This document shows positions 27,021 through 40,485 of a DNA stretch of 57,227 nucleotides, in pieces. The notes below the pieces were generated by a model, which worked only from the letters and a program-made list of their open reading frames with translations, made no database searches and was not told where the DNA came from. Position numbers and translations under genes: made by a program. The stretch comes from Myxococcales bacterium (GTDB lineage: Bacteria; Myxococcota_A; Polyangia; GCA-2747355): NCBI GenBank assembly GCA_020431405.1, contig JAGQIK010000020.1:1-57227 (forward strand). The letters are read 5' to 3'. Every line of letters starts with the position of its first letter. Position 1 is the first letter of the stretch.

Positions 27021-27827
27021 GTGGCCAAGCAACACGAGAAGGCTGAGGGACTGCCGAACGAACCGAACGTGGGTTGGCGTGTCGGCATCCTGATCATCGG
27101 CTCGCTGTTTTGGGACACCAAACGAAAGAAGTGGCGCGAGCAGCTCAGGTTCGACAAAGAGGCACAACCAAGTATCAAGGTCCCGATTCGCTACGGGCGC
27201 ATCTCCAAGAGCCGCGGCAACTGCTACACGATGGCCTTCGATCCCAAGTTGGACGACATCAAGTGGGGTGATGCGTTCGTGATCGAGGCCAAGAAGCGGG
27301 CCGCGGACGTTGACTCACTGCTCACGGAAGCGGTCGAGCTGGGCGAAGCCGAAGGCATCCCCGACAACATGTGCATTGCACGCTGGTGCGCTATCGGGGC
27401 TGTCTGGAGGCGTGCTGAACCACAGGTTGTGCGTGAGTGGCGAGACAAGCTCGCCACCAAAGCCACTGACGCGGTGCGGAGGAAGCACCCGAATCGCGCG
27501 GACATCGCGCGCCTTGCAGACCTCCCCTTCAACTGGTCCATCCTCGATGCTGATGAGAAATTCGACGTGCTGCTCGCGGCCAACTGCGACCCCGTCGCCG
27601 AGTGGCCATCGGCCGCAGACATCGCCCATCGCATGTACGCTGACACAACTCGCTTGGGCTTCGAGTACTTCCAGAAGAACCGAAAGGCGGGGATCACCAC
27701 ATTCCAAGACGCCGATATTCTCAGGGAGCTGAAGGCTCTGTTCGAGAAGGACCACGACCGTTTGAAGTGGATCGACGATCAAGTGAACTGCTTTGACGCT
27801 ACGACTCGTCGCTCGCCCTCGAAGTGA
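27021..27827 (+). CDS. Unknown protein, possibly gamma-glutamylcyclotransferase-like fold
   Basis: A 268-residue protein. The early segment 'RVGILIIGSLFWD', followed by 'WREQ', 'KVPIRYGRISKSRGNCYTMA' and 'GDAFVI', resembles the GGCT-like barrel (Y/IGSLxWD and R-x-S-x-x-RG patterns), but I am not sure. GTG at 27021 is chosen because GGAG lies 6 bases before it; the frame is open back to a TTG at 26913. It begins the island's plus-strand operon, 78 bp before the next gene. Such folds remove amino-acid or nucleotide-linked adducts. Any role in defence is inference. Confidence 0.5.
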   Translation: MAKQHEKAEGLPNEPNVGWRVGILIIGSLFWDTKRKKWREQLRFDKEAQPSIKVPIRYGRISKSRGNCYTMAFDPKLDDIKWGDAFVIEAKKRAADVDSLLTEAVELGEAEGIPDNMCIARWCAIGAVWRRAEPQVVREWRDKLATKATDAVRRKHPNRADIARLADLPFNWSILDADEKFDVLLAANCDPVAEWPSAADIAHRMYADTTRLGFEYFQKNRKAGITTFQDADILRELKALFEKDHDRLKWIDDQVNCFDATTRRSPSK

Positions 27828-27905
27828 AGTAGCTGTCGTCAAGCTGGGGGCCCGGCGTCTTCGGCGTTGCTAGCATCTCTAGCACTTTCAACACCGTCGT
27901 CAGCA

Positions 27906-29276
27906 ATGAAGCAGTTTGCGGCCGAAGTACGTCTTGCGCCGCACGCTGTCATTGTAGAAATCTTGGCAGACGTCGAGCTGGATCGATATGCAACGGGTCA
28001 AAGAAGAGGCAGGGCGATGTTTCATCTGACCAAACTCGACGAGGAGCTCGCGGCGTCTGGCGGTTCGCGCGATCCACTCGGCCTGCAGCCCGTGTGGTCC
28101 TACTTCGGACGCAAACTGGTTCCATCGCTGACGACGGTATCGACGCGGTCGCAGCATTTTTCCCGCTTGCTGCTGGCGCTGTCCTGCCGAGACACGTGGC
28201 TTGCCCAGCGCCCGGGAACCGAGCTGTCGGGGGTTGAGGCCCTTCTTGTCTTCGAAGAGCTTCATGCCTACTCCCTGCGCGCCGAGATGGATGACATCGG
28301 TGAGACCCCCGGCAAGCGGCGCGTGGAGGTGAACTGGCGAGAGCTCAGGGGCGATCCTGAGATCGGACACTGGCCCGAACAACAGATCCTGCGCAACCAG
28401 GCTGGAGTTGGGATCTCCGGCCGCTACTTCACGCCACTCGTTCGAATGGGCATCGTCGACAAGGAGGGATGTTTGGCTGGCGATGTGCGCGTGGAGCAGT
28501 TGTTCGGTGTTGAGGTGAACCGGCTTCAGCGTGCTGTGAGGACCGTTCTCGAGGCGATCGAGGAGAGCCAGCGGCCGGTAGCGTTTTCCAGCGTTCCCAA
28601 AACGGCGCGCCGGCTCATGGCGCGACTGCTGCCGCACGAGGGGCACGTCGCTGATGCCGAGGTGAGTTTTTGGAAGCAGCGCATCGGCATAGACGGCGAG
28701 CGGGCGCCGCTCGTACGACGTGCAGCAGCGTACCTTCGCCAGACTCCAAAGGATGTCGAGCAGGTGCCGCGCGCTGTGGTCAACGCATTGCTCGACAGTG
28801 AGCTTAGCGCCACGCTGCGCGGTATTGTCGCGGACATCTGCGCTTGCGAGGCGTACATTGCGCCTCTGCAGAAGCTCTTCGATCAGCTGTACCTCGCTGG
28901 CAGTCTCTCCCGCTTCGACGCGACCGAGGTGACACGCGCTTGGCGCGACCAGCTGCGCCAAGCGCAGCCGAGCTTCGCTCGTCTTCGAGTGGAAGGCGAA
29001 CAGCTCGGGCGACGATTTCGCTCCCTAGTCGAAATCGAAGCCAGCGGGAGCAGCGGGGCTCTCGCTCGATCGCTACTTCGACACCACACCTTGGTCTCTG
29101 AAGGGAGGGGAGGTACGCCGTGGCTTGCCATCGAGAGCAGCAAGGTGCACGCCCTCAACTCGGCGTACGAGCCGTGGGCCTGGAGCAGCATGGATGAGGC
29201 GGCTTGGGTCAATGGCTACTATGTCCCGTCGCTTCGCAGCGTGCTTGACGGTCTTGACCAGAGACAGGCTCAGTGA
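27906..29276 (+). CDS. Unknown 456-residue protein coupled to PLD nuclease and helicase
   Basis: No known domain recognised. The protein is mainly helical with stretches such as 'SRDPLGLQPVWSYFGRKLVP', 'LSGVEALLVFEELHAYSLRA', 'GRYFTPLVRMGIVD' and a C-terminal 'NSAYEPWAWSSMDEAAWVNG'. The 'VEALLVFEEL' region and the helix-rich end suggest a scaffold or target-recognition subunit. ATG 27906 is preferred over TTG 27867, though neither has a clear Shine-Dalgarno. Its stop overlaps the PLD gene start by 4 bp (GTGA), so the products are made together. Similar proteins beside SNF2/PLD genes are something I only recall loosely (DUF6361-like context). Confidence 0.55.
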   Translation: MKQFAAEVRLAPHAVIVEILADVELDRYATGQRRGRAMFHLTKLDEELAASGGSRDPLGLQPVWSYFGRKLVPSLTTVSTRSQHFSRLLLALSCRDTWLAQRPGTELSGVEALLVFEELHAYSLRAEMDDIGETPGKRRVEVNWRELRGDPEIGHWPEQQILRNQAGVGISGRYFTPLVRMGIVDKEGCLAGDVRVEQLFGVEVNRLQRAVRTVLEAIEESQRPVAFSSVPKTARRLMARLLPHEGHVADAEVSFWKQRIGIDGERAPLVRRAAAYLRQTPKDVEQVPRAVVNALLDSELSATLRGIVADICACEAYIAPLQKLFDQLYLAGSLSRFDATEVTRAWRDQLRQAQPSFARLRVEGEQLGRRFRSLVEIEASGSSGALARSLLRHHTLVSEGRGGTPWLAIESSKVHALNSAYEPWAWSSMDEAAWVNGYYVPSLRSVLDGLDQRQAQ

Positions 29277-31285
29277 GCGAAAGGACCCTGCGTGAGGTCT
29301 TGCGCGACGCCATCGATCGCGTCGGCGAGCCTACGCTCGCCCTTTTCACCACGTTCAACTTCGACCCCGTCTTCTTCGAAGACTACGTTTTGCCGGTGTT
29401 CTGTGAAGGACTCGACGCGACAACGATGTCAGGCGTACTGGCAGCAGATCGGTTTCTTCGCAGTATGGCCACCGTCGTGTTCCACGATGCGGACCAGCTC
29501 GCCCAGGGGCGAAAGCGGCTTTCATACGGCACGGTGCCCGTTCGCCCGGAGGCGCACAATTTCTTCCATCCGAAGCTCATTGTGTTGGGCAACGACGATG
29601 GCGAGTTTCTGCTCATCGTCGGCTCGGCGAATCTGACGGTGTCGGGCTGGGGGCGCAACCACGAGGTGATAACCACACCCGTCGATGTGCCTGCCAAGAG
29701 CTACGTATCGCTGACACTCTTTCGTACCTTGGAGTGGCTGCGCGACTATGCCCAGGCTCAGCTGCGTGGTGTTGATGGCGAAGCGGTCTGGTACCAGAAG
29801 CTCGACCGGGCCGTGAGCGAGCTGGAGACACATCGACGTCGATCGAAGGACGACCGTTTTCTGCTGTCGTCGCTCAGCGAGGCCTACGACGGTGGCGTTG
29901 TTGAGAACCTCGCGAGCTACGCGGAACTGGTGGACGCACGACGGTTGACGGTCTACTCGCCGTACTTCAGCAGCAACTTGTCCAACTTGGTGGCCTCGCT
30001 GCGGAGCAAAATCGGTCGGCCGAGCCTGCAGGTGCGTCTCGTGCCGGCACTGGAGATGACGCGCGATGGCCAGCTTCGTGTCGGCATCTGTGACGCCGAG
30101 CGAGACGTCGACAGGGAGTACGAGATCCGTCGCGTGCGAGGAGATCACGGGCAGCGATTCCGCCACGCCAAGCTTTTCTGGGTCGAGGGAACGAAGAGGC
30201 GTCATGTCGTCATGGCTGGCTCGCACAACTTCACGAGACCAGCGTTGGCGCTCGACCTCGAAGGTCATGCACCCAACGTGGAAGCGTCGCTCGCCGTCGC
30301 CCTTGGTGAGAAGGAGACACTCGCGCTCCTCGGTGACTTAGCGGACCTCGAGTTGCTCGATCTCGATGCTGTCGTGCTCAAGACTCGCGAGGAGCTCGAG
30401 GAGGAAGCCCCCCGAGTGTCGCGTTTTTCGTGTTCGGTGGTAGCCGATTGGCGCAAGCGCGAGTACCGCGTTGTCGGGCAGCCGACTCACGCTAGCCTGT
30501 TGATCGAGCTGCCCGGCCTTAGCGAGGACACACACGTAGTAGCAGGCGAGCCGACGATTGTGGCCTTCACCGACCAGGTCGACAAGGCGCTGCGTCGACG
30601 CAAGTTCTTCCGTGCATGGCTCGATGGACAGTTGGACGAGCCGGTCGTTGGCCTTGTTTGTGAGCTTGGTTGGGAGCGATTTCGAGTCGACGCGGTCGGG
30701 ACGAACCTGGCTGACTACCTTGACGTCTGGCGCGCGGGTGACCACGACGACCTGGTCGATAGGTCGTCGCGAAAGATGCTGCGCTCGCTCGTTGAGAACG
30801 GCGACGGTGAGAATGAACGGGATGCTGTGGAGGTGATCGCTAGCCGGCTCGAGCGGCAGGAGCATCTCGACACACTCTACGGAATGCTGGGGGGCTTCAT
30901 CGAGCTGGCGCGTCACGTCGATCAGGCGCAATCGGCGGCAGCCGTTGACGAGCTGCTTTGGTGTGGACCGCACAGTCTGGCCAACTTTGTGCAACTGCTC
31001 GAGGACACCGCTGACGAGGTGCTTTCCCCGATACGTCGCTGGGTGCTCTACACCGAAGCGCAGCAACTGATAGCGCGTCCTACGTCGGTTCGTGCAACCG
31101 ATGGCGTAGCCGAACGCCTCTACGAGCTATGCCAGCGGCTTCGTGAGTGTTGCCGGCGGATCGAGGAGTCGACCGTCCTGCGCGATATCGATCGTGCGCA
31201 CATCGACGACACCACTCCACTCTTCGAGTGGTTTCGCCGCCAGCTTGGACTCGAATTTGAAAGGATGTGGGAGGCCGACGAGTGA
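29273..31285 (+). CDS. PLD-superfamily nuclease with two HxK motifs
   Basis: A 670-residue protein. Two phospholipase D-like half-sites are present: His99/Lys101 with GSANLT at 117-122, and His298/Lys300 with GSHNFT at 316-321. Together these form a complete HKD-type active site in one chain, as in DNA nucleases of the family. The C-terminal 300 residues are helical and unassigned. GTG start at 29273, overlapping the preceding and following genes by 4 bp each. PLD nucleases paired with helicases occur in DISARM (DrmC) and Dpd (DpdK) defence systems. Here it most likely cuts DNA handed over by the SNF2-type helicase. Confidence 0.75.
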   Translation: MSERTLREVLRDAIDRVGEPTLALFTTFNFDPVFFEDYVLPVFCEGLDATTMSGVLAADRFLRSMATVVFHDADQLAQGRKRLSYGTVPVRPEAHNFFHPKLIVLGNDDGEFLLIVGSANLTVSGWGRNHEVITTPVDVPAKSYVSLTLFRTLEWLRDYAQAQLRGVDGEAVWYQKLDRAVSELETHRRRSKDDRFLLSSLSEAYDGGVVENLASYAELVDARRLTVYSPYFSSNLSNLVASLRSKIGRPSLQVRLVPALEMTRDGQLRVGICDAERDVDREYEIRRVRGDHGQRFRHAKLFWVEGTKRRHVVMAGSHNFTRPALALDLEGHAPNVEASLAVALGEKETLALLGDLADLELLDLDAVVLKTREELEEEAPRVSRFSCSVVADWRKREYRVVGQPTHASLLIELPGLSEDTHVVAGEPTIVAFTDQVDKALRRRKFFRAWLDGQLDEPVVGLVCELGWERFRVDAVGTNLADYLDVWRAGDHDDLVDRSSRKMLRSLVENGDGENERDAVEVIASRLERQEHLDTLYGMLGGFIELARHVDQAQSAAAVDELLWCGPHSLANFVQLLEDTADEVLSPIRRWVLYTEAQQLIARPTSVRATDGVAERLYELCQRLRECCRRIEESTVLRDIDRAHIDDTTPLFEWFRRQLGLEFERMWEADE

Positions 31286-34200
31286 GCAGCCTCTTCCGAG
31301 ACGCGATCGCGACCGACCAGGTGCGTCGCATTCTCTCACTGAAACCTGTCGGGTATGGCAACACCGCCGGTGGCGGTGCATCGATGTACGACAAGCAGGT
31401 TCGCGGGATCGCGCGCCTGTACAACATCCTCTGCGAGCACCCACTTGCGTATCTTGCGGACGAAGTGGGGATGGGCAAGACCTATCAAGGCCTCGGGTTG
31501 GCGTGCGTGTTGTGGAATCTTGATCCCGATGCGCGCGTGATGGTCGTTGCTCCTCGTGGCAACGTGCAGCGTAAATGGGCGGCCGACTACTACGCGTTCC
31601 TCCGAAACAACTACCGGCATCGCGACGATCGAGTCGTTGATTGTCTCCTTGGTCGCCCGGTGCGCGAGCCCGCTATCTGCGATAATCTGACCCACCTCGT
31701 CAGCGAGCTCGTACGCGACGCCACACGGTTCTTCGTCCTGCGGCACACGTCGTTCATGCGACCTGTGGTCTTTTCGTCGTCAGGACGAACGCAGGCCGGC
31801 ACCATCGTCAAAAAGAAGCGCGGCGAGTTCAACCTGCTCCACGCTTATCCTGCTGGCGAACTCCGAGACGAGTTCCGGCGGTCGACCCTCGCTAACGACG
31901 AGGCGAGACAAGCATGCATGTCGTGGACTGCCGCCGCCGTCAATCAATCACTGCCCGACGTGGACCTTTTGATCGTCGATGAGGCTCAGTGCCTGCGAAA
32001 CCGTACTAACCAGAGCAATCGCAACTTCCGCCGCGTCTTCGGCCTCCACCAGAGTCCTGATGAGCGCCGCGAAGAGCTCGGCCGCTTTCTCGACGGACGG
32101 ACGTTCGGGGGCCACACGCCGAGATGTCGTGTCAGACGCCTGCTCCTGCTCAGTGCGACACCAGCACATTCACGTGTGGAAGACATCGCTTCACAACTGC
32201 GGTACGGCCTGGGACTTGACGATTCCGATCAGCTACGCCAGGTGATCGACGCGTTGGAGCAGTCTCAAGGCGATGTGGCGCGGGCTAGCGACGCCCTGCG
32301 GCGGGTGATGGTCCGACGCTTTCGCATGTTTGGACAGCTGAACAAGTACGGCTATCGGGAAGAGTACGCACCAGCGATGCGCGTCGAGGAGGACCCACTC
32401 GCGGAGCTCTCGACTGCGTTGGTGACCAAGCACGTTTATCGCGCGCTCAAAGGCCGTGGGAATCGCTTCCGAGTGGGGTTTCTCTCCTCGTTCGAGAGCC
32501 TGCAGGATTCCATCGGCCGGCAAACTAGAGCGTCGGAGGATGAGGACCCCCCCTCCGAGGGTACGCACACCGAGGAGGACGGTCGCCCGCCGGACCAGGG
32601 CTTCATCACCACGCTGAATCGGTCCTTTCAACAGTCGTTTGGCATCCCCTTGGTCCATCCCAAGCAGCGCTACGTTGTTGACGAGGCTCGCCACATCCTC
32701 GATCCCTCGCGAACTCCCGATCTCGTCAAGATGCTCGTTTTCGTGCGGCGCATTGCCAGCGTCGGCGAGCTCGCGCGCGACATCTCGGCTGCATACGATG
32801 AAGTTGTGGAACAGCGACTCGCGCGGCTGTTCGACCTCGACACCGTAGGGGTCAGCCCCAGCCTGGTTGAAACGCGATTGCGTGAGCTGCGCGGGCGCGG
32901 TGATGACGATCAGCGAGGGGAGCATGGCGGTGACGAGGACGACAGGGCGCGCGAGGATGTGGGCACCACCAGCCGATACCTTGATCTCTTCCGTTCGCGC
33001 GGCTCGCCAGGGCAGTGGTTTCGAACGCGGTTCAACCAAGGTCGAGCGCTGTGGTGGTTTTTCGACGAGAACTGGGTGCGCACCCTCTGGTGGCTGCACA
33101 CGGGTGGCAGCCAATCGTTGGATGCCTACCTTGGTGGGCGTGGCCTGTCCTGTAGCGATACCGACGCGGCGTATCCCACGCGCCACGAGGCTTTCTACAA
33201 GAGCCAGCTGAACGTGATCGACGACGTGTGTCGCGCGTCGGCACCAGGCGTGTGTTCGTTCCTCAGGCGTCGCCTGGCGCGCTACGCAGACGATGCGGAT
33301 CGCGCGGGAGCGCCGGACGCGCGGCTGCTGCTGCGTACGTCATTCTGGAACGAGCTGCTCGAGCGCGGAGCCGACGGCTACGCCAGCTTTCTGTCATTCG
33401 AGCCGGGCGACGGGCAAGAGGATGCTCTGTATCAACGCGAGCAGATCAAGGCGTGGATGTCGAAGAACCTGCGCATGTCCGAGCCAATATTCGACCTAGC
33501 GGCCGCGTATCGTCGGCATGCCGACGACTACGGTGCGATGGTGCGACGTTTTGTCGATCTCGTCGAGGAACAGCCCAAGCTCGTGAGACGACTCGAGCTC
33601 CTCGCCAGCCATGCGATCCTGATCGACCGCACACTCGGCTACGACCAGCGGGCTGACCGCTATGATCGCCTGGATGGTTGGGCCGTCTTCGATGAGCAGA
33701 ACCCGGTGCGGGGCGTGCTCGGCGGTTCTGGCAATCGAGATATCGCGACGCGGCAGTTCAATACGCCCTTTTTTCCCGATGTCGTTGTCTGCACCGACGT
33801 GCTGCGGGAGGGAGTCGACCTTCATCTGTTCTGCGACCGCGTTGTCCACTATGGACTGGCCTACAGTCCGGGAGATATCGAGCAACGAACGGGTCGCATT
33901 GATCGCTACTTCAGCAAGACCTACCGCGCGATCGAGACTTCCACCAGCCATAGCAGTCGCCTCCGGGTCGAATACCCCTACGTTGCTTCGACGCTGGACG
34001 AGCTGCAGCTCGCACGCGTGTTGTCGAGGCGCAACGAAGTGCAGACGTTGATGGACCGGGGGTTGCCCATCCCCGAGTTCGATCGCGATATGTCAGCACG
34101 GGAGAAGGTCGATCCAGTCGTAGACCTGCTCCTCAAGCCCTCGAGAGAGCGCCGCGAGGATCCGTTTCCAGCTTTGGAAGGTAGCGGCCCGACGACGGTC

Positions 34201-34788
34201 CACGTCGCGCCGCCCGAAGGTTGGCACGACCAGGCTCGAGATCACCTCCGCAATGCACTGCGTGAGTTTCGGAGGCGATATCGAACAGTCGGGCGAGCCG
34301 ATGTCTATCTTGAAGGAAAGCTCGACTTCCGAATCGCTCGCTTGACCGTGGCTATCGTCGGGAGAGGTGAGGGCAAGCGTCTCGCTCTGGTAGACGAGAC
34401 CTTTCAGCGCGTGCAAGCCGTGCAGCTGACATTGGACTTCCTCGGCGAGTACCGCACCCACGTGGTCCGCGCTCGCTCCTGGATCACCAAGGACAGCGAA
34501 AGGCAGAGCACGCTCGACGCGTGGCTGAGCGCGCTGCCAGCAGCGCCCGTGGCTACGTTTGCCGCCGGCGTCGCGGTCGTACACGAACATCGCCGAACAA
34601 GCAGGCGGCAGGTGCTGAATGCGCTCGTCGCCGAATCAGGAATACCGTTCACGCGCGAGGATCAAGCCTGCACCATGCACACAGACGAGCTCGCTGATCT
34701 CGTTAGGCGTGTCGCACTCACCGCGGACCTCTACGAAGAGCAGCTTCATGGTGCCGATGATCGCGTGCCGGAAGCCGGGTGGAGGTAG
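31282..34788 (+). CDS. SNF2-type superfamily 2 helicase/translocase
   Basis: A 1168-residue ATPase. Motif I is ADEVGMGKT (about 59-67), motif II is DEAQ (233-236), motif III is LLSATP (about 288), and motif VI is 'QRTGRIDR' near 867, preceded by 'TDVLREGVDLH'. The DEVGxGKT and GRIDR forms belong to the SNF2/RapA-like branch. A long insert between the two RecA-like halves contains an acidic, low-complexity patch (around residues 415-440 and 540-560). The C-terminal 250 residues are unassigned. GTG start overlaps the PLD stop. Probable role: DNA translocation or remodelling driving the nuclease. Confidence 0.8.
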   Translation: MSSLFRDAIATDQVRRILSLKPVGYGNTAGGGASMYDKQVRGIARLYNILCEHPLAYLADEVGMGKTYQGLGLACVLWNLDPDARVMVVAPRGNVQRKWAADYYAFLRNNYRHRDDRVVDCLLGRPVREPAICDNLTHLVSELVRDATRFFVLRHTSFMRPVVFSSSGRTQAGTIVKKKRGEFNLLHAYPAGELRDEFRRSTLANDEARQACMSWTAAAVNQSLPDVDLLIVDEAQCLRNRTNQSNRNFRRVFGLHQSPDERREELGRFLDGRTFGGHTPRCRVRRLLLLSATPAHSRVEDIASQLRYGLGLDDSDQLRQVIDALEQSQGDVARASDALRRVMVRRFRMFGQLNKYGYREEYAPAMRVEEDPLAELSTALVTKHVYRALKGRGNRFRVGFLSSFESLQDSIGRQTRASEDEDPPSEGTHTEEDGRPPDQGFITTLNRSFQQSFGIPLVHPKQRYVVDEARHILDPSRTPDLVKMLVFVRRIASVGELARDISAAYDEVVEQRLARLFDLDTVGVSPSLVETRLRELRGRGDDDQRGEHGGDEDDRAREDVGTTSRYLDLFRSRGSPGQWFRTRFNQGRALWWFFDENWVRTLWWLHTGGSQSLDAYLGGRGLSCSDTDAAYPTRHEAFYKSQLNVIDDVCRASAPGVCSFLRRRLARYADDADRAGAPDARLLLRTSFWNELLERGADGYASFLSFEPGDGQEDALYQREQIKAWMSKNLRMSEPIFDLAAAYRRHADDYGAMVRRFVDLVEEQPKLVRRLELLASHAILIDRTLGYDQRADRYDRLDGWAVFDEQNPVRGVLGGSGNRDIATRQFNTPFFPDVVVCTDVLREGVDLHLFCDRVVHYGLAYSPGDIEQRTGRIDRYFSKTYRAIETSTSHSSRLRVEYPYVASTLDELQLARVLSRRNEVQTLMDRGLPIPEFDRDMSAREKVDPVVDLLLKPSRERREDPFPALEGSGPTTVHVAPPEGWHDQARDHLRNALREFRRRYRTVGRADVYLEGKLDFRIARLTVAIVGRGEGKRLALVDETFQRVQAVQLTLDFLGEYRTHVVRARSWITKDSERQSTLDAWLSALPAAPVATFAAGVAVVHEHRRTSRRQVLNALVAESGIPFTREDQACTMHTDELADLVRRVALTADLYEEQLHGADDRVPEAGWR

Positions 34789-34792
34789 ACTG

Positions 34793-35203
34793 ATGGAGCT
34801 TGACGAGCTCGAGAAGTTGATTCCGACTCTTCGATTCGGCGGCCGCGTCTCTGTTCGATCGGTCGGAGGAACGGAGCCCCTGAACGTGACTCTCGGCATC
34901 GGTGATGGCGGCCGAGGCCAGAAGCTCGAGATCACGTCGCGCTGGACGCCGTACGTCGTGATTCGCTCCAAGGTCTGCGCCGTCGACGATCTGCCGGGCG
35001 ATGACCCGCTCAGCTGGATGCTCACGGAGAATGCTGGCTCGGGACTCGGCGCGATCGTCGTGCGTGGTCGCTCGGTCTGGATAGAGATGGTGCTGCTCGC
35101 CGACTACGTCGATAGACCCGAGCTGGCGCTGGCAATCGAAGCCGTGGGTTTGGAGGCAGACCGCCTCGAAGCCAAGATGAGCGAGGGACGCGACCGCTAC
35201 TGA
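34793..35203 (+). CDS. Small YbjN/CesT-fold-like protein
   Basis: A 136-residue protein, ATG at 34793 with GGAGG 7 bases upstream, 4 bp after the helicase stop. The layout is helix, several beta strands ('KLEITSRWTPYVVIRSKVC'), a short segment, strands ('GAIVVRGRSVWIEMVLL') and a C-terminal helix ending in 'EADRLEAKM'. That matches the YbjN / type III chaperone-like fold used for protein binding. It is the last gene of the island's plus-strand operon and may act as chaperone or inhibitor of the larger subunits (inference). Confidence 0.55.
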   Translation: MELDELEKLIPTLRFGGRVSVRSVGGTEPLNVTLGIGDGGRGQKLEITSRWTPYVVIRSKVCAVDDLPGDDPLSWMLTENAGSGLGAIVVRGRSVWIEMVLLADYVDRPELALAIEAVGLEADRLEAKMSEGRDRY

Positions 35204-35290: not shown

Positions 35291-37618
35291 TCAGGCTCCA
35301 GCTGGGGTGTTGCCGAGGGCGAGCCGCCGGTTTTGGGGATGAGCACACGCGATGGCGCTGTATGACCTGGTGTCGTGCTCGAGGTCTCTGGTGATGACCA
35401 CGACACGCTCGACGCCCGACAGGTCGCGCGCTTCGCTTATCGCTGCCTGTACGTAATTGTCGCGAGTGGTCTTGTCGACGTTGGTGTGCGCCAGTGCGAC
35501 CACGCCCGCTCGTCGTTGTGGCGGCCCGTACGACATCACCGCCGCGTTTTGGTGGCCCCGTGTTCTCCGATGCTGTTTCACGTTCTCCTTGATCTTGCGA
35601 AACGCGACTTCGAGCTTGCGTTGGTCATCGGGCGGGAGGTTGAGGAGCAAACAGGCGAGATCTGTCCAACGAGGCGTTTTTCGCTTCTCCAACGTCTCCA
35701 GAATCGCCGACCACCAAGCTGTCATCTGCATCGATGGCCTCTGAGCAGCGCCTGGGCTCTGGTGCATGTAGTACTCGTCGATCCGTCGCGATGCGCCAGC
35801 CAGTTGCAACATGCTGACGCCGTCGAACTCCACTTCGCCGATGTTCAAGCCGTTGTCCAAGTACAGTGCGAGAAGGTCGATCTCGTCGCCCGTGAACAGC
35901 GCATGCTCTTCGAACTCCGGCCGACGGGTGAGGAAGTGGATGCGCTGTGCCTGGGTCGCGAGTATGTCGAAGATCGTCTCCAGGTCCGCAAGGCAAACGC
36001 TCCACGCGAGCGACTCGGCGGTTGCCAGGCCGGACTCGATCAGCTCGCGTCGGGGCGCGCTCAGCAGGGGGAACAACTCGAACGTCACACTCAGACGTCG
36101 AAAATGGTGGATGTCCGTCGTGTCAACCTCGTTGCAGGTGCCGGACCTCGTCTTGAACGAGTGCTTGCCTGGGTTTTGTGCGAGGAAGTTGACGAAGCGA
36201 CCGGCCTGCGCCGACGGAGCCACAACGAGCTCTTCGATCGTCTTCTTCACTCTTCCGGGTGCACCGCGACGGGCTGGGCCGGTGATCTTTCCCGACTTCG
36301 CCTCGACGACGAAGATGTGCGAGTCGATTTGGACGAGGAGGTCGTTCTCGAACTCCTTGCCGCTCTCCGGGTCGGTCCAGAGGCTCCCACAAAAGAGCGA
36401 CGCGTCTGGCAGGGCTTTGGCAAACAGTTCGGCGACAGCGTTCTCGAGGTACTTTGCCCGTTCGTGTTCGTAGGCGCGAAAGAGCGCGCCGTCGACGCTT
36501 AGCTGTTGCTCGACCAGCTCCGTGCAAAAGCTCAGTCCGAGCGTCGGGATCGGCATGAAGTAGCCGTTGTCGACGCGCACGAGTGGCCGCTGCCAGATGG
36601 GATTGCCGAGGAAGAAGTGCTCGCGGTCGACGTCTACCAGCGCTCCCCAGTCGTGGCACCAGCGATCGAGCACCGCCTCGAGTACATCAACGTCGATGGC
36701 CCCGTCGTACATGTGCGCCAGCTCGGCGGTTGTGAACGTGTAGATGTCTGGGAGCGATAGATCCCGATGCTGGATCAGCAGTGCCTTTACGCTCTCCAGG
36801 TCAAGGTGCGCGAGCCCGGCCATCCGCGAGCGATCCACGTCGGGAAAGCGCTCGCAGTAGACGTCAAAGACCGTCTGTACCGTGGGGGCTCGAAAGATGG
36901 CCTGCATGTCGAAGCGATGCCTGTTGAGCCGTCGCTCCGTCTCGGCGATCAGCTTCTCGAACACTTGGACGAGCTTGGAGGGCCGAAAGCCGAGCTGCTG
37001 GTTTGCTCGATCATCCATCGGCGCGAAGAGCGCCCGAGATAGTCGAAATACCTGCCGCGGGTAGCCCCAATTTCTGACCGCGTGGGTCGCGCCCCGCATC
37101 CTCTCCAGGACCGCAGCGCGATGTCGTTCGGGCCTTGGGAGCTTCGTGGTGGCTTCGAAGCGTTTCAACGCGAAGCTCGTGCTCGCGCGCGTCAGGAGCG
37201 GCTTGAACGTCTCGAGATTGGGACTCAACGCCTCGCGCAGGTTGCGGGCATCGACGCTCGGCTGTGCTAGCGCGAACGCCTGCAGCAGCTCGACGTGGAA
37301 CGGCGAGAACATGCCGACGTGGTCGCCAACCTCCACGCTTCCGTCGTCAGCAACGCCCTGCGTGAGACCGTAAAGCGACGCGGCGGCTAGCAGTATCGTG
37401 GGTTCAGCGTTCGCGACCGCAGCCTCCAACTCCGAAACGGCCGTCTCAAACTCTGTACCCGCCGCAGCGCCCAGCTTGCCAAGTCTCCGAAGCGTCTCGG
37501 CTTCGTCGAGACCGGCCAATGGATGTGCCACTTCCCAAAAGTGCAAACCGTCGCCAGTACCGGGCGACGCGGCCTTCGCCCGTCGCCTGTGTTTCTTTCG
37601 TCTGCTGTTTCGGCCCAT
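35291..37618 (-). CDS. PD-(D/E)XK nuclease-like protein
   Basis: A 775-residue protein with a very basic N-terminus (RRKKHRRR). The central region holds a restriction-endonuclease-like core: Glu/Asn/Asp at 424-426 (FENDLL), then a strand ending in Glu439-Ala-Lys441 (VVEAKSGK). This is the E/D...ExK signature of NERD-type and other PD-(D/E)XK nucleases. The N-terminal 350 residues are helical, with no recognised domain; the C-terminus is Arg-rich. It starts 4 bp after the upstream gene's stop, so the two are coupled. Proposed role: DNA cleavage in an island-borne defence module. It is convergent to the helicase operon. Confidence 0.65.
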   Translation of the reverse strand: MGRNSRRKKHRRRAKAASPGTGDGLHFWEVAHPLAGLDEAETLRRLGKLGAAAGTEFETAVSELEAAVANAEPTILLAAASLYGLTQGVADDGSVEVGDHVGMFSPFHVELLQAFALAQPSVDARNLREALSPNLETFKPLLTRASTSFALKRFEATTKLPRPERHRAAVLERMRGATHAVRNWGYPRQVFRLSRALFAPMDDRANQQLGFRPSKLVQVFEKLIAETERRLNRHRFDMQAIFRAPTVQTVFDVYCERFPDVDRSRMAGLAHLDLESVKALLIQHRDLSLPDIYTFTTAELAHMYDGAIDVDVLEAVLDRWCHDWGALVDVDREHFFLGNPIWQRPLVRVDNGYFMPIPTLGLSFCTELVEQQLSVDGALFRAYEHERAKYLENAVAELFAKALPDASLFCGSLWTDPESGKEFENDLLVQIDSHIFVVEAKSGKITGPARRGAPGRVKKTIEELVVAPSAQAGRFVNFLAQNPGKHSFKTRSGTCNEVDTTDIHHFRRLSVTFELFPLLSAPRRELIESGLATAESLAWSVCLADLETIFDILATQAQRIHFLTRRPEFEEHALFTGDEIDLLALYLDNGLNIGEVEFDGVSMLQLAGASRRIDEYYMHQSPGAAQRPSMQMTAWWSAILETLEKRKTPRWTDLACLLLNLPPDDQRKLEVAFRKIKENVKQHRRTRGHQNAAVMSYGPPQRRAGVVALAHTNVDKTTRDNYVQAAISEARDLSGVERVVVITRDLEHDTRSYSAIACAHPQNRRLALGNTPAGA

Positions 37619-37622
37619 GTGG

Positions 37623-38483
37623 TTATCTGCCCTTCGCTGCTCGTTGCGCCAGACAGCGAGAGATCAAGGAAAACACGGACACCGTGGACGCGAACGCGAA
37701 CTCCGCCTCCGCCCGAGAGACGTGGACCGCAGGGTACTGCTCGTGACGTCCCAGCTCGTTCGCGTGTGTGCGGAGTCCGGCGATCACAGCCTCGACCGCT
37801 CGTCGCCTGGCTTGGTGATCGCCGAAGGCACGCTCGAGCAGAAGGTCGAAGCCTTGTTTGACACCATCACCCTCGACTTCGTACTTGGCGGCGCTCTCGA
37901 AGGCTGCGCGACACTTAGAAATCGTGCCGCTATGGTCGCCGGCGCGAAGCGCGCGGCGGGCTTCATCTATGCGTGCGAGTGCTTGGGCCAGCTTCTCGTC
38001 ATGCATGAGTGGTAGGCGTGGCAGCTCGATCAGCTCCAGCTCGTCCCACTTCATTTCTCGCAGGCGCTTGATCCACTCCGACTGAGGTATCGCCAGATAC
38101 GACTGGCAGGTACTCCACGTGACCGTGTTCGGATTTGCGATCTTCTGCGCCTGGTATTCGATCTCCAGCCGAAGCGGTACGTCTTGTCGACCGTCGCGCC
38201 ACTCCTCGATGAAGGCGAGGGCACCCGCGGGCATCGAGACGACGACGGTCACCGATTGTCTGACGTCGCGCTGGAGGCGGGCACCGCTGTCGTGTCCCCA
38301 GGTTTGGGAGTGAAGGCGGACGTCATCGGAAACAACGTCGTCGCCGATCTGCGCATGGCCACGCGCGCCGAGGAGGTACGCCGGCTCGGCAGCCAGCCAG
38401 GAAATGGACCCTCGGAGCTCGAGCCGTCGTATCGGTCCGGGCCGGCCCGTCGATGATTCGAGCTCGATTCGCATCGCACTCAT
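37623..38483 (-). CDS. Unknown protein with possible HEPN-like C-terminus
   Basis: A 286-residue protein; ATG at 38483 is chosen because GGAGA lies 6 bases before it (the open frame runs to 38579). The N-terminal ~140 residues are beta-rich. The segment 'IPQSEWIKRLREMKWDELEL' leads into a helical half with 'RIDEARRALRAGDHSGTISK' and 'CRAAFESAAKYEVEGDG', the pattern of helical HEPN-like domains. I see no obvious RxxxxH catalytic motif, so any HEPN activity would be non-nuclease or structural. It is the first gene of the two-gene minus-strand unit with the PD-(D/E)XK protein. Confidence 0.5.
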   Translation of the reverse strand: MSAMRIELESSTGRPGPIRRLELRGSISWLAAEPAYLLGARGHAQIGDDVVSDDVRLHSQTWGHDSGARLQRDVRQSVTVVVSMPAGALAFIEEWRDGRQDVPLRLEIEYQAQKIANPNTVTWSTCQSYLAIPQSEWIKRLREMKWDELELIELPRLPLMHDEKLAQALARIDEARRALRAGDHSGTISKCRAAFESAAKYEVEGDGVKQGFDLLLERAFGDHQARRRAVEAVIAGLRTHANELGRHEQYPAVHVSRAEAEFAFASTVSVFSLISRCLAQRAAKGR

Positions 38484-38845
38484 CAAGAATCTCCAGGGGA
38501 ATGTCGGGGAGCTAGGCCGCAGTTCTAGCGTGAACGCCGACGGCGTCAACACCTGTGGCCGCGCGCTCGTGATATACACAGTGCATACAGGTAACCATTT
38601 GACATCATGGTTGTTTGTGTTGCGCGATCTCGGCCGGCTATGGCAGGATGTGGCTGCCGAGGCGGTGCCGAAACCTGAGCTGGCTGATCGTTATGGTGCC
38701 CTCGTCGGCGACAAACTCAACGCCCGTGCGCTGCTGCTGAGAGTCGAAGACCACCACTGATCTGGAGGACCGCGGCGCCGTCGCAACCGCCGCCCTCCCC
38801 GGGCACGCCGCCGCCTGACGCACGTCGGGTCGGCAAGGTGTGCCA
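38484..38845. other. Divergent intergenic region, no firm gene
   Basis: 362 bp between the minus-strand nuclease pair and the plus-strand HTH gene. An AT-rich patch around 38565-38615 could hold promoters for the minus-strand operon, but no box is convincing. Two short frames exist (38404-38760 plus, 38638-38823 minus). The end of the minus frame ('FVADEGTITISQLRFRH') looks protein-like and might be the tail of a decayed gene. I cannot support either as a gene. Confidence 0.35.
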
Positions 38846-39325
38846 GTGCCCGCTGCTTCCCCTCCACGACGTTGGCTGACCGTTCGCCAGGCGTGCGAAT
38901 GGCTCGGCTGCTCGCGCGCGCAGATCTACCGCCTGATCAACAGCGGTGCGCTTACGCCCGATGGCCGGGTAGGTAGGCGCCACCGCTTCCTCGCGGAGAG
39001 TCTCGACGCTTACGTGCGTGCTAACGTCAACGGCGACAGCATGGGGCATTTGGCCGGTGAGGAGATGCAACATGCCGATCAAGCGAGACCGGCCAAAGCC
39101 AACCGGCGTGCCAGGGATCTATCAAGACGGCCCCGAGCGGTTCCTGGTTCGCGTGAGATGGACAGACCAGAAGACGGGCCGAAGGAGGAAACGAGAGCGA
39201 GTGGCGACGAGCCTGGCAACGGCGGTGGCTCTCAAGGAGGCCCTGGTCGGCACAGCACCCGTGCCACGCGCTACGCGCAAGCGGTTCGGCGCTTACGCGA
39301 CGCGATGGAGCGAGGACCACGGTAG
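38846..39325 (+). CDS. Excisionase-like HTH protein (MerR/helix_turn_helix_17 type)
   Basis: The N-terminal ~65 residues are a clear DNA-binding domain: 'RWLTVRQACEWLGCSRAQIY' then 'RLINSGALTPDGRVGRRHRF', as in excisionase-family proteins encoded before integrases. GTG at 38846 is favoured by AAGG 7 bases upstream (the frame also has GTG at 38840). After about residue 75 the frame runs through the integrase gene for 254 bp and becomes an Arg/Gly-rich, unlikely sequence, so a stop may have been lost. Likely role: directionality of integration/excision or control of the integrase gene. Confidence 0.6.
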   Translation: MPAASPPRRWLTVRQACEWLGCSRAQIYRLINSGALTPDGRVGRRHRFLAESLDAYVRANVNGDSMGHLAGEEMQHADQARPAKANRRARDLSRRPRAVPGSREMDRPEDGPKEETRASGDEPGNGGGSQGGPGRHSTRATRYAQAVRRLRDAMERGPR

Positions 39326-40331
39326 CCGACTGGTCGACTCGACGAAGGCGCGCTACGCCGGTGCGCTCGCCCACGCGACGCTCGCGTTCGGTGAGATGTT
39401 CGTCGATGCCGTGCAGGCGGCCGACTTGCGGTCGTGGATGGCGATGATGCGGCGGACGTGTCCGTGTGGTCAGGATTGGCGCAAGGTCATCGACGGGACG
39501 TGTGCCTGCGGCCGGAAGCAGCCGTACGGTGCGCCAACCGTCAACGGGTGGCTGCGCGTTCTGCGTGTTGTTTTCGACGACGCCGTAGCTGACGGCATCG
39601 CCGAGATGAACCCAGCACGCGCTGTGAAGTCGCTGCCTGAGGGCAAGACGGCGGGCAAGCGCGGGACGGCCTTGACTGTGCGGCAGTTTCAAGCCGCGTT
39701 GCAAGCCATTGTCGCGCTGCGATACGTGACCAAGCGGGGCGAGGGTATCTCGGCCGATGTCTCGCGGATGTTGTTGGTGAGCGCTTGGACTGGCGTGCGA
39801 CGAGGCGAGCTGATGGGCCTGCGTTGGACGGACATGGTTGATGGTGAGCTGCAGATCGAGCGGTCGGTGTATCGACGGGGTGAGAAGGCGACCAAGACCG
39901 ACGACCCGCGCCGGGTGACCATAGTCGAGCCCCTGGCGGTCGTGCTTGCGGAGCAACGCCGCTGGTTGATCGAGACGCAGCACCGCGGCGTCGGTTCGGG
40001 CTTGGTTTTCCCGGCAAGCCCGCAGCACGCGAAGGCGGGCGCCACGCGGCGCGATGTCGATGAGGTGTCTTGGTACCGCAGTCCATCGGTGCTCGATGAG
40101 CCGCTACGCCGTGTCGTCAAGGAAGCGAGCATCCCGCCGATCTCGCCGCAGAGCTTTCGGCGGACCTGGGAGAACGTGCTGCGCGAGGCGGGCGTCGACC
40201 AGCTCGTCCGGCGCGCGCTGGCGGGCTGGCGCACCGAGAAGGCGCAGGGGATCTACGCCACAGTCGACCGCGCCGAGCGTGATGCGGCCTCCGAAGCAGT
40301 GGTCGCGCTCGTGTTGGGGAAGGAGGAGTGA
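39072..40331 (+). CDS. Tyrosine recombinase/integrase
   Basis: A 419-residue integrase; ATG at 39072 with GAGGAG 7 bases upstream. An N-terminal arm-binding domain ('GVPGIYQDGPERFLVRVRW') is followed by a core-binding domain and a catalytic domain. Catalytic Arg is in 'TGVRRGELMGLRW', the second Arg in 'SPQSFRRTW', and the nucleophilic Tyr in 'GIYATV'. The usual HxxR histidine is replaced by Gln. A Cys-rich insertion, CPCG...CACG (about residues 136-156), looks like a zinc knuckle in the core-binding domain. It lies 82 bp from the 3' end of tRNA-Gly, its likely target. Confidence 0.85.
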   Translation: MPIKRDRPKPTGVPGIYQDGPERFLVRVRWTDQKTGRRRKRERVATSLATAVALKEALVGTAPVPRATRKRFGAYATRWSEDHGSRLVDSTKARYAGALAHATLAFGEMFVDAVQAADLRSWMAMMRRTCPCGQDWRKVIDGTCACGRKQPYGAPTVNGWLRVLRVVFDDAVADGIAEMNPARAVKSLPEGKTAGKRGTALTVRQFQAALQAIVALRYVTKRGEGISADVSRMLLVSAWTGVRRGELMGLRWTDMVDGELQIERSVYRRGEKATKTDDPRRVTIVEPLAVVLAEQRRWLIETQHRGVGSGLVFPASPQHAKAGATRRDVDEVSWYRSPSVLDEPLRRVVKEASIPPISPQSFRRTWENVLREAGVDQLVRRALAGWRTEKAQGIYATVDRAERDAASEAVVALVLGKEE

Positions 40332-40408: not shown

Positions 40409-40413
40409 CGAAG

Positions 40414-40485
40414 AGCGGGAGACGAGATTTGAACTCGCGACGTCGACCTTGGCAAGGTCGCACTCTACCACTGAGTTACTCCCGC
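40414..40485 (-). tRNA. tRNA-Gly (GCC)
   Basis: The reverse complement folds as a complete tRNA. The acceptor stem GCGGGAG pairs with CTCCCGC, the D stem is ACTC/GAGT, the anticodon stem is CGACC/GGTCG around TTGCCAA (anticodon GCC, glycine), and the T arm contains GTTCAAAT. The CCA end is not encoded. Its 3' end faces the integrase, the usual arrangement for a tRNA used as an integration site. Confidence 0.95.

What the first reader, a model, noticed from the sequence alone, without database searches (positions are those of the whole stretch)
27021..35203. Candidate new defence operon: GGCT-like protein, unknown 456-aa protein, PLD nuclease, SNF2 helicase, YbjN-like protein
Four of the five genes are joined by 4-bp overlaps or a 4-bp gap, so the proteins are made together. 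The PLD protein keeps both HxK/GSxN half-sites and the helicase keeps all main motifs. PLD plus helicase is the engine of DISARM and Dpd systems. Missing here are DrmB (DUF1998), a methyltransferase and the Dpd base-modification enzymes, so self/non-self discrimination must work differently, perhaps through the unknown protein or the GGCT-like enzyme. It sits in a tRNA-linked island.
Basis: partly seen in the sequence, partly recalled or inferred. Interest (0 to 1): 0.82.

Follow-up and report, generated by a model that had tools for sequence, protein, structure and literature searches.

The report
PLD-nuclease/helicase defence operon with chaperone-like subunit
Four neighbouring genes make a DNA-cutting enzyme, a DNA motor, a helical protein of unknown fold and a small chaperone-like helper; the first three are already listed in a defence-gene database as an untested candidate (PDC-M27), and the fourth appears to be a partner that the database does not list.

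Summary
The operon is real, but it is not unnamed. The 456-aa protein, PLD nuclease and SNF2 helicase match PADLOC's candidate PDC-M27 A, B and C (E 4e-31, 1e-46, 2e-108). PDCs are guilt-by-embedding candidates, mostly untested, and I found no paper on PDC-M27. Starting from the PLD gene, 70 of 71 loci in many phyla carry A directly upstream and 64 carry C downstream. The PLD and helicase catalytic residues tested are invariant or nearly so, and A, B and C co-evolve. The GGCT-like gene is not part of the unit: no homologue in any locus, 189 bp from the corrected start of A (28017, 419 aa), and no GGCT match. The YbjN-like gene is a real fourth subunit (D), without a PADLOC model. It follows helicases with a ~200-aa C-terminal extension (31 loci separate, 7 fused) and is absent after 27 short helicases. 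A predicted model shows the extension and D as tandem type III secretion chaperone/YbjN folds. A has a confident all-helical model with no PDB or viral match. No methyltransferase recurs. The window's island sits at a tRNA-Gly attachment site. Most likely it is an ATP-driven, BfiI-like nuclease defence complex; its non-self signal is unknown and the defence role is inferred.

The parts
28017..29276 (+). Gene A (PDC-M27A), 419-aa all-helical protein of unknown fold; the annotated 456-aa version starting at 27906 is probably too long
   Evidence: PADLOC PDC-M27A E 3.6e-31; homologues start at residue 38; AlphaFold2 pLDDT 88, pTM 0.87 with no PDB or viral fold match; no Pfam match in 65 homologues beyond three single chance-level hits
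29273..31285 (+). Gene B (PDC-M27B), PLD-superfamily nuclease, 670 aa, two half-sites
   Evidence: PADLOC PDC-M27B E 1.3e-46; Pfam PLDc_2 2.4e-10; nearest solved structure BfiI 2c1l; catalytic residues H99, K101, S118, N120, E131, H298, K300, S317, N319, E337 invariant in 74-78 sequences
31282..34788 (+). Gene C (PDC-M27C), SNF2/RapA-like SF2 helicase/translocase, 1168 aa
   Evidence: PADLOC PDC-M27C E 2.1e-108; nearest solved structures RapA; motifs invariant or nearly so in 67 sequences
34279..34776 (+). C-terminal extension of C: predicted type III secretion chaperone/YbjN-like domain (approximate limits)
   Evidence: AlphaFold2 of the homologous region in locus L053 and Foldseek hits to ExsC, YbjN, SicP; last helix matches the D profile, i-E 2.4e-4; profile-profile similarity to D over 121 columns
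34793..35203 (+). Gene D, 136-aa YbjN/TY-Chap/type III secretion chaperone-like protein; fourth subunit, no PADLOC model
   Evidence: D profile built without the window hits it at E 0.003 among 12,617 ORFs; first of 213 window ORFs by profile-profile score; Pfam TY-Chap1 0.013 for this protein and YbjN 4e-5 for homologues; no PADLOC match for 21 homologues
27021..27827 (+). So-called GGCT-like gene, 268 aa: judged NOT part of the unit
   Evidence: No homologue in any A-B-C locus, none in 289 other genomes of the class; distant relatives sit alone on Paracoccus and Mesorhizobium plasmids
39018..40331 (+). Tyrosine integrase of the island
   Evidence: Pfam Phage_integrase 3.5e-7; PHROG integrase 9.8e-48; second, damaged copy on contig C617
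40413..40485 (-). tRNA-Gly (GCC), attachment gene
   Evidence: ARAGORN
40412..40459 (.). Putative attachment core: 48-bp tRNA 3' segment repeated outside tRNA genes elsewhere in the genome
   Evidence: C642 48/48 bp identical; homology with C617 ends at 40458; no tRNA called at either copy

Best explanation
The unit is a four-gene member of the candidate defence system PDC-M27. Shown: A, B and C are inherited together in fixed order; B keeps both PLD half-sites and C keeps its ATPase motifs; D accompanies helicases with the C-terminal extension and is fused to that extension in some lineages. Inferred: the four proteins form one complex on DNA. C is an ATP-driven translocase that carries or activates B, a BfiI-like PLD nuclease that cuts invading DNA. 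A is a helical scaffold or sensor. D pairs with the C-terminal extension as a pseudo-dimer of type III secretion chaperone folds, which bind peptides in known relatives, so it may hold B off or A in place until a phage protein or DNA structure is met. Self/non-self is not set by a methylation enzyme of the operon, because none recurs.
For: PADLOC A/B/C matches. 70 of 71 loci found with B have A directly upstream and 64 have C downstream; 4 of the other 7 are cut by contig ends. 4-nt overlap is the commonest junction (A-B 31 loci, B-C 46 loci). Distance matrices of A, B, C correlate, r 0.84-0.93, 0 of 500 permutations as high. Catalytic residues invariant or nearly so. D after long C in 31 loci, fused in 7, absent after 27 short C. 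Model of a natural C-D fusion: two chaperone folds. Sporadic, cross-phylum distribution. No match in 50,697 phage records or in viral contigs. PADLOC families matched by neighbours: 442 versus 47 for control genes. In the window, on a tRNA-integrated island.
Against: No experiment. Complex formation and the role of A are inferred. The PADLOC neighbour comparison is rough: families are redundant, the neighbours come from many phyla and the control from one class. The window copy lies on a long branch (nearest 26% identity), and its D is recognised only weakly by sequence. D is missing from a large subfamily, so it is not essential to every version. The B search used one peptide pattern, so copies lacking it were not sampled.
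Confidence: 0.66

Rival explanations
1. A restriction system of the CglI/NgoAVII kind: the PLD nuclease and helicase restrict unmethylated DNA at a sequence, with a methyltransferase supplied elsewhere.
For: Same pairing of a BfiI-like PLD nuclease with an SF2 ATPase; nearest solved structure of B is BfiI. CglI works as an R2H2 complex that translocates and cuts on collision (PMC5737866).
Against: No methyltransferase recurs beside the genes. The only recurrent RM genes are type I subunits in about six loci. No DNA-recognition domain was matched in B.
Confidence: 0.12
2. A DNA-repair or recombination unit with no immune role: RapA/SNF2 translocase plus nuclease clearing protein-DNA blocks.
For: C is closest in solved structures to RapA; all enzyme motifs are intact.
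Against: Presence in 12 of 290 genomes of the class, scattered phyla, a plasmid copy in Rhodoferax, an integrated island in the window.
Confidence: 0.1
3. A subtype of DISARM or Dpd that has lost its modification genes.
For: C resembles DrmD and DpdE, B weakly resembles DrmC and DpdK.
Against: NCBIfam equivalog cut-offs are missed by far (DrmD 57 of 610 bits, DpdE 61 of 500, DrmC 35 of 133). A, B, C match PDC-M27 models far better, and no DUF1998 was found.
Confidence: 0.05
4. All five genes, including the GGCT-like one, form the system as first proposed.
For: Same strand and close spacing in this window.
Against: GGCT homologue absent from all relative loci; gap of 189 bp to the corrected start of A; no GGCT match.
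Confidence: 0.03

Closest known systems
PDC-M27 (PADLOC-DB phage defence candidate)
   Same: A, B and C all match its models, in the order A-B-C
   Different: The candidate has no model for D. I found no published description or test. The window copy is divergent (26% identity to the nearest PLD relative in the tree).
ZacB/ZacC models of PADLOC (origin of the name not found)
   Same: PLD protein (E 3.4e-13) and helicase (5.9e-21) resemble B and C
   Different: Much weaker than PDC-M27; no match of A
DISARM (DrmC, DrmD)
   Same: PLD nuclease and SNF2-like helicase
   Different: No DrmA/DrmB(DUF1998), no methyltransferase; far below equivalog cut-offs
Dpd (DpdE, DpdK)
   Same: SNF2 helicase and PLD protein
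   Different: No base-modification genes; far below cut-offs
CglI / NgoAVII / BfiI restriction enzymes
   Same: BfiI-like PLD nuclease working with an SF2 ATPase (PMC5737866)
   Different: No methyltransferase; extra A and D subunits; SNF2/RapA-like rather than H.CglI-like ATPase
YbjN / TY-Chap / type III secretion chaperones (ExsC, SicP, CesT)
   Same: Fold of D and of the C-terminal extension; TY-Chap proteins already predicted in bacterial immune loci that counter ADP-ribosylation (PMC9503650)
   Different: Here coupled or fused to a DNA helicase, which I did not find described

Membership tests
PDC-M27 | M27A, M27B and M27C proteins | tested here: met
   E 3.6e-31, 1.3e-46, 2.1e-108; PADLOC's own system thresholds were not available
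PDC-M27 | Genes adjacent, in fixed order | tested here: met
   4-bp overlaps in window; same order in relatives
PDC-M27 | Anti-phage activity | not testable with these tools
   No experiment found; PDCs described as unvalidated (PMC12988326)
DISARM | DrmB (DUF1998) and DrmA | tested here: not met
   No DUF1998 or DrmA-type match at cut-off in the operon and its immediate neighbours scanned; relatives share no such gene
DISARM | DNA methyltransferase in the operon | tested here: not met
   None among the operon proteins; no methyltransferase recurs beside the unit except type I RM in a few loci
Dpd | 7-deazaguanine modification genes, DpdE/DpdK equivalogs | tested here: not met
   DpdE 61 of 500 bits, DpdK 19 of 100 bits; no modification genes found in the operon
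CglI/NgoAVII type RM | PLD nuclease with helicase and a cognate methyltransferase | tested here: not met
   Nuclease and helicase present, methyltransferase absent
Gamma-glutamylcyclotransferase (27021-27827) | GGCT-family sequence match | tested here: not met
   No Pfam match at E 1 for it or two relatives; no PDB match
YbjN / type III secretion chaperone superfamily (gene D) | Sequence profile match | tested here: inconclusive
   Window D: TY-Chap1 E 0.013, below cut-off; 9 of 21 aligned members match YbjN, best 4e-5
YbjN / type III secretion chaperone superfamily (gene D) | alpha-beta-alpha chaperone fold | tested here: met
   Model of the L053 fusion (pLDDT 86) hits ExsC, YbjN, SicP with probability 1.00, E 2e-3 to 6e-3; tested on a relative, not on the window protein itself

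The most novel reading that the evidence does not exclude
A four-subunit immune complex in which a DNA helicase uses a paired chaperone-like module (its own tail plus D) to read a peptide of a phage protein and then release a PLD nuclease on DNA, with a new helical protein (A) as coupler: nucleic-acid destruction gated by protein recognition rather than by DNA modification.
Probability: 0.2. Interest if true: 0.82.

Novelty: new variant of a known kind. Interest (0 to 1): 0.52.

Why it matters
PLD-helicase pairs recur in several immune systems (DISARM, Dpd, CglI), but how they tell phage from host without methylation is open. This family has no recurrent modification gene, a subunit of apparently new fold, and a chaperone-like module that travels with, and is sometimes fused to, the helicase tail. 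It gives a defined four-gene unit, catalytic residues to mutate and a natural fusion for structural work. It also suggests adding a fourth model to the PDC-M27 definition.

Tried and rejected
GGCT-like gene as a component: rejected. Other recurrent neighbours as components (AAA, DUF2779 and WYL genes upstream in Rhodoferax): a DUF2779-type gene recurs in four loci and the WYL gene in two, too few to be core. A methyltransferase: none recurs. PDB, Pfam, PHROG and viral-structure searches for A: nothing usable. Left end of the island inside the window: no repeat longer than 13 bp, not convincing. Empty site in relatives: the three other genomes of the order lack the flanking protein tested, so the test failed. 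Promoter and terminator scan upstream of A: nothing. Meaning of the PADLOC name 'Zac': not found.

Full report
Observation. Translation and junctions were checked directly. The PLD gene (B, 29273-31285) overlaps the gene before it by 4 bp, the helicase gene (C, 31282-34788) overlaps B by 4 bp, and the small gene (D) starts at 34793, 4 bp after C. Homologues of the '456-aa' protein (A) align from its residue 38, so A most likely starts at ATG 28017, behind an AGAGG-like ribosome site, and is 419 aa long. The GGCT-like gene ends at 27827, 189 bp before that start.

Identity. PADLOC models name A, B and C: PDC-M27A (3.6e-31), PDC-M27B (1.3e-46), PDC-M27C (2.1e-108), well ahead of ZacB/ZacC, DrmC/DrmD and DpdE/DpdK. 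NCBIfam equivalogs for DISARM and Dpd are missed by wide margins. PDCs are candidates from a guilt-by-embedding screen and most are unvalidated (PMC12988326). No paper in the library mentions PDC-M27 by that name, and two recent surveys of related helicase systems showed no such operon in the passages I read (PMC12458937, PMC12839542).

Recurrence. In 290 genomes of the same class, 12 (the window's own among them) hold an A relative. In the loci fetched, A is followed by B, and by C where the contig reaches; one further very divergent copy was seen in a genome already counted. A scan of one genome per species with the B alignment gave 71 loci from many phyla, with one weak archaeal case. Seventy have A directly upstream (in L033 and L037 with one inserted gene between) and 64 have C downstream; of the seven without C, four (L040, L045, L050, L077) are cut by the contig end, and L048, L055 and L072 are real exceptions or damaged. 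The commonest junctions are 4-nt overlaps. Distances among A, B and C correlate at 0.84-0.93 with no permutation as high. Phyla are mixed on the B tree (27 changes for 13 groups, least possible 12; quick method with several long branches, the window's included).

Catalysis. In B, H99, K101, S118, N120, E131, H298, K300, G316, S317, N319 and E337 are identical in every sequence that reaches them (78 or 74 rows); in C, the Walker A residues, D233-E234, A292-T293, Q868, R872 and R875 are invariant in 67 rows. B's nearest solved relative is BfiI (weak, E 9e-4); C's is RapA.

Fourth subunit. Clustering of all neighbouring ORFs gave one family in 29 loci, a 120-140-aa gene just after C; the next true gene families occur in seven loci or fewer (a nine-locus cluster is the opposite strand of the same gene). 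A profile made without the window finds the window's YbjN-like gene at E 0.003 among 12,617 ORFs, and it ranks first of 213 window ORFs by profile-profile score over 100 columns. Each line is modest; together with its position after C they make the assignment secure enough. D is separate in 31 non-redundant loci (one, L075, seen by eye) and fused to the C-terminus of C in seven. All of these have C of 1146 aa or more. None of the 27 full-length helicases of 825-997 aa has D. The one long helicase without a recognised D, L030 (1341 aa), carries a further tail with a weak stretch similar to window D. PADLOC has no model for D.

Fold of D and of the helicase tail. A natural fusion (L053, last 398 aa of C+D) was modelled at pLDDT 86. 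Both halves show helix, strands, helix, two strands, helix. Foldseek returns type III secretion chaperones and YbjN (ExsC, SicP, SycN-YscB, YbjN) with probability 1.00, E 2e-3 to 9e-3. The two halves also align to each other by profile over 121 columns, P 0.0018. Such chaperones bind peptides, and TY-Chap proteins have been predicted in immune loci that counter ADP-ribosylation (PMC9503650). That they sense a phage peptide here is my inference.

Subunit A. The model is confident (pLDDT 88, pTM 0.87) and almost wholly helical. Foldseek against PDB and viral models gives no match at E 0.001 and no TM-score above 0.26 in the matches listed, apart from one 109-residue viral fragment (0.39 on the target's length). 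Cellular predicted structures were not searchable, so 'new fold' is limited to those libraries. Pfam gives nothing consistent in 65 members.

Setting. The window is a contig of an 11.2-Mb genome. An integrase lies next to tRNA-Gly. A 48-bp tRNA 3' segment recurs exactly on contig C642, and the integrase-to-tRNA stretch recurs at 89% on C617, where similarity stops 46 bp into the tRNA; no tRNA is called at either. This is the pattern of attachment sites. The left end of the island was not found. The neighbours' PADLOC scan matched 442 families against 47 in a control set, but these counts are inflated by redundant models, and the control comes from one class only.

Mechanism and verdict. Shown: fixed gene set, intact active sites, tight coupling, D tied to the helicase tail, absence of a recurrent methyltransferase, scattered distribution, absence from the phage records searched. 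Inferred: one complex, DNA translocation by C, cutting by B, sensing or scaffolding by A, chaperone-like gating by D with the tail, and defence as purpose. The finding is therefore a divergent member of a listed but undescribed candidate system, with a fourth subunit that the listing lacks.

Noticed in passing
window 40412-40459; G000 C617:1751-2870; C642:14922-14969: Three copies of a tRNA-Gly 3' segment in one genome, one beside a damaged 89%-identical integrase: several related integrative elements, or pieces of one, share the site.
   Followed up: partly
window 35291-37618 (-): 775-aa protein with a weak NERD nuclease-related match; a 167-bp piece of it (81% identical) lies next to the integrase copy on C617.
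   Followed up: partly
window 37623-38579 (-): Unknown protein with a weak HEPN match (E 0.04); a distant relative lies just after the helicase gene in locus L098 (E 1e-5).
   Followed up: partly
L037:8663-9898: Transposase gene (looks like the ISL3 family, by eye) inserted exactly between A and B in Rhodopirellula.
   Followed up: no
L033:8416-9915: AlbA_2/Schlafen-like gene inserted between A and B in an acidobacterium.
   Followed up: partly
L014:5322-15949 (Rhodoferax antarcticus plasmid): A-B-C preceded by AAA ATPase, DUF2779 and WYL-regulator genes; a DUF2779-type gene also sits near A-B-C in L044, L050 and L080.
   Followed up: partly
L030:11793-15815: Helicase of 1341 aa with an extra tail beyond a possible D-like stretch; not characterised.
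   Followed up: no
window 27021-27827: Orphan 268-aa gene with only distant relatives on two alphaproteobacterial plasmids; no family match.
   Followed up: partly
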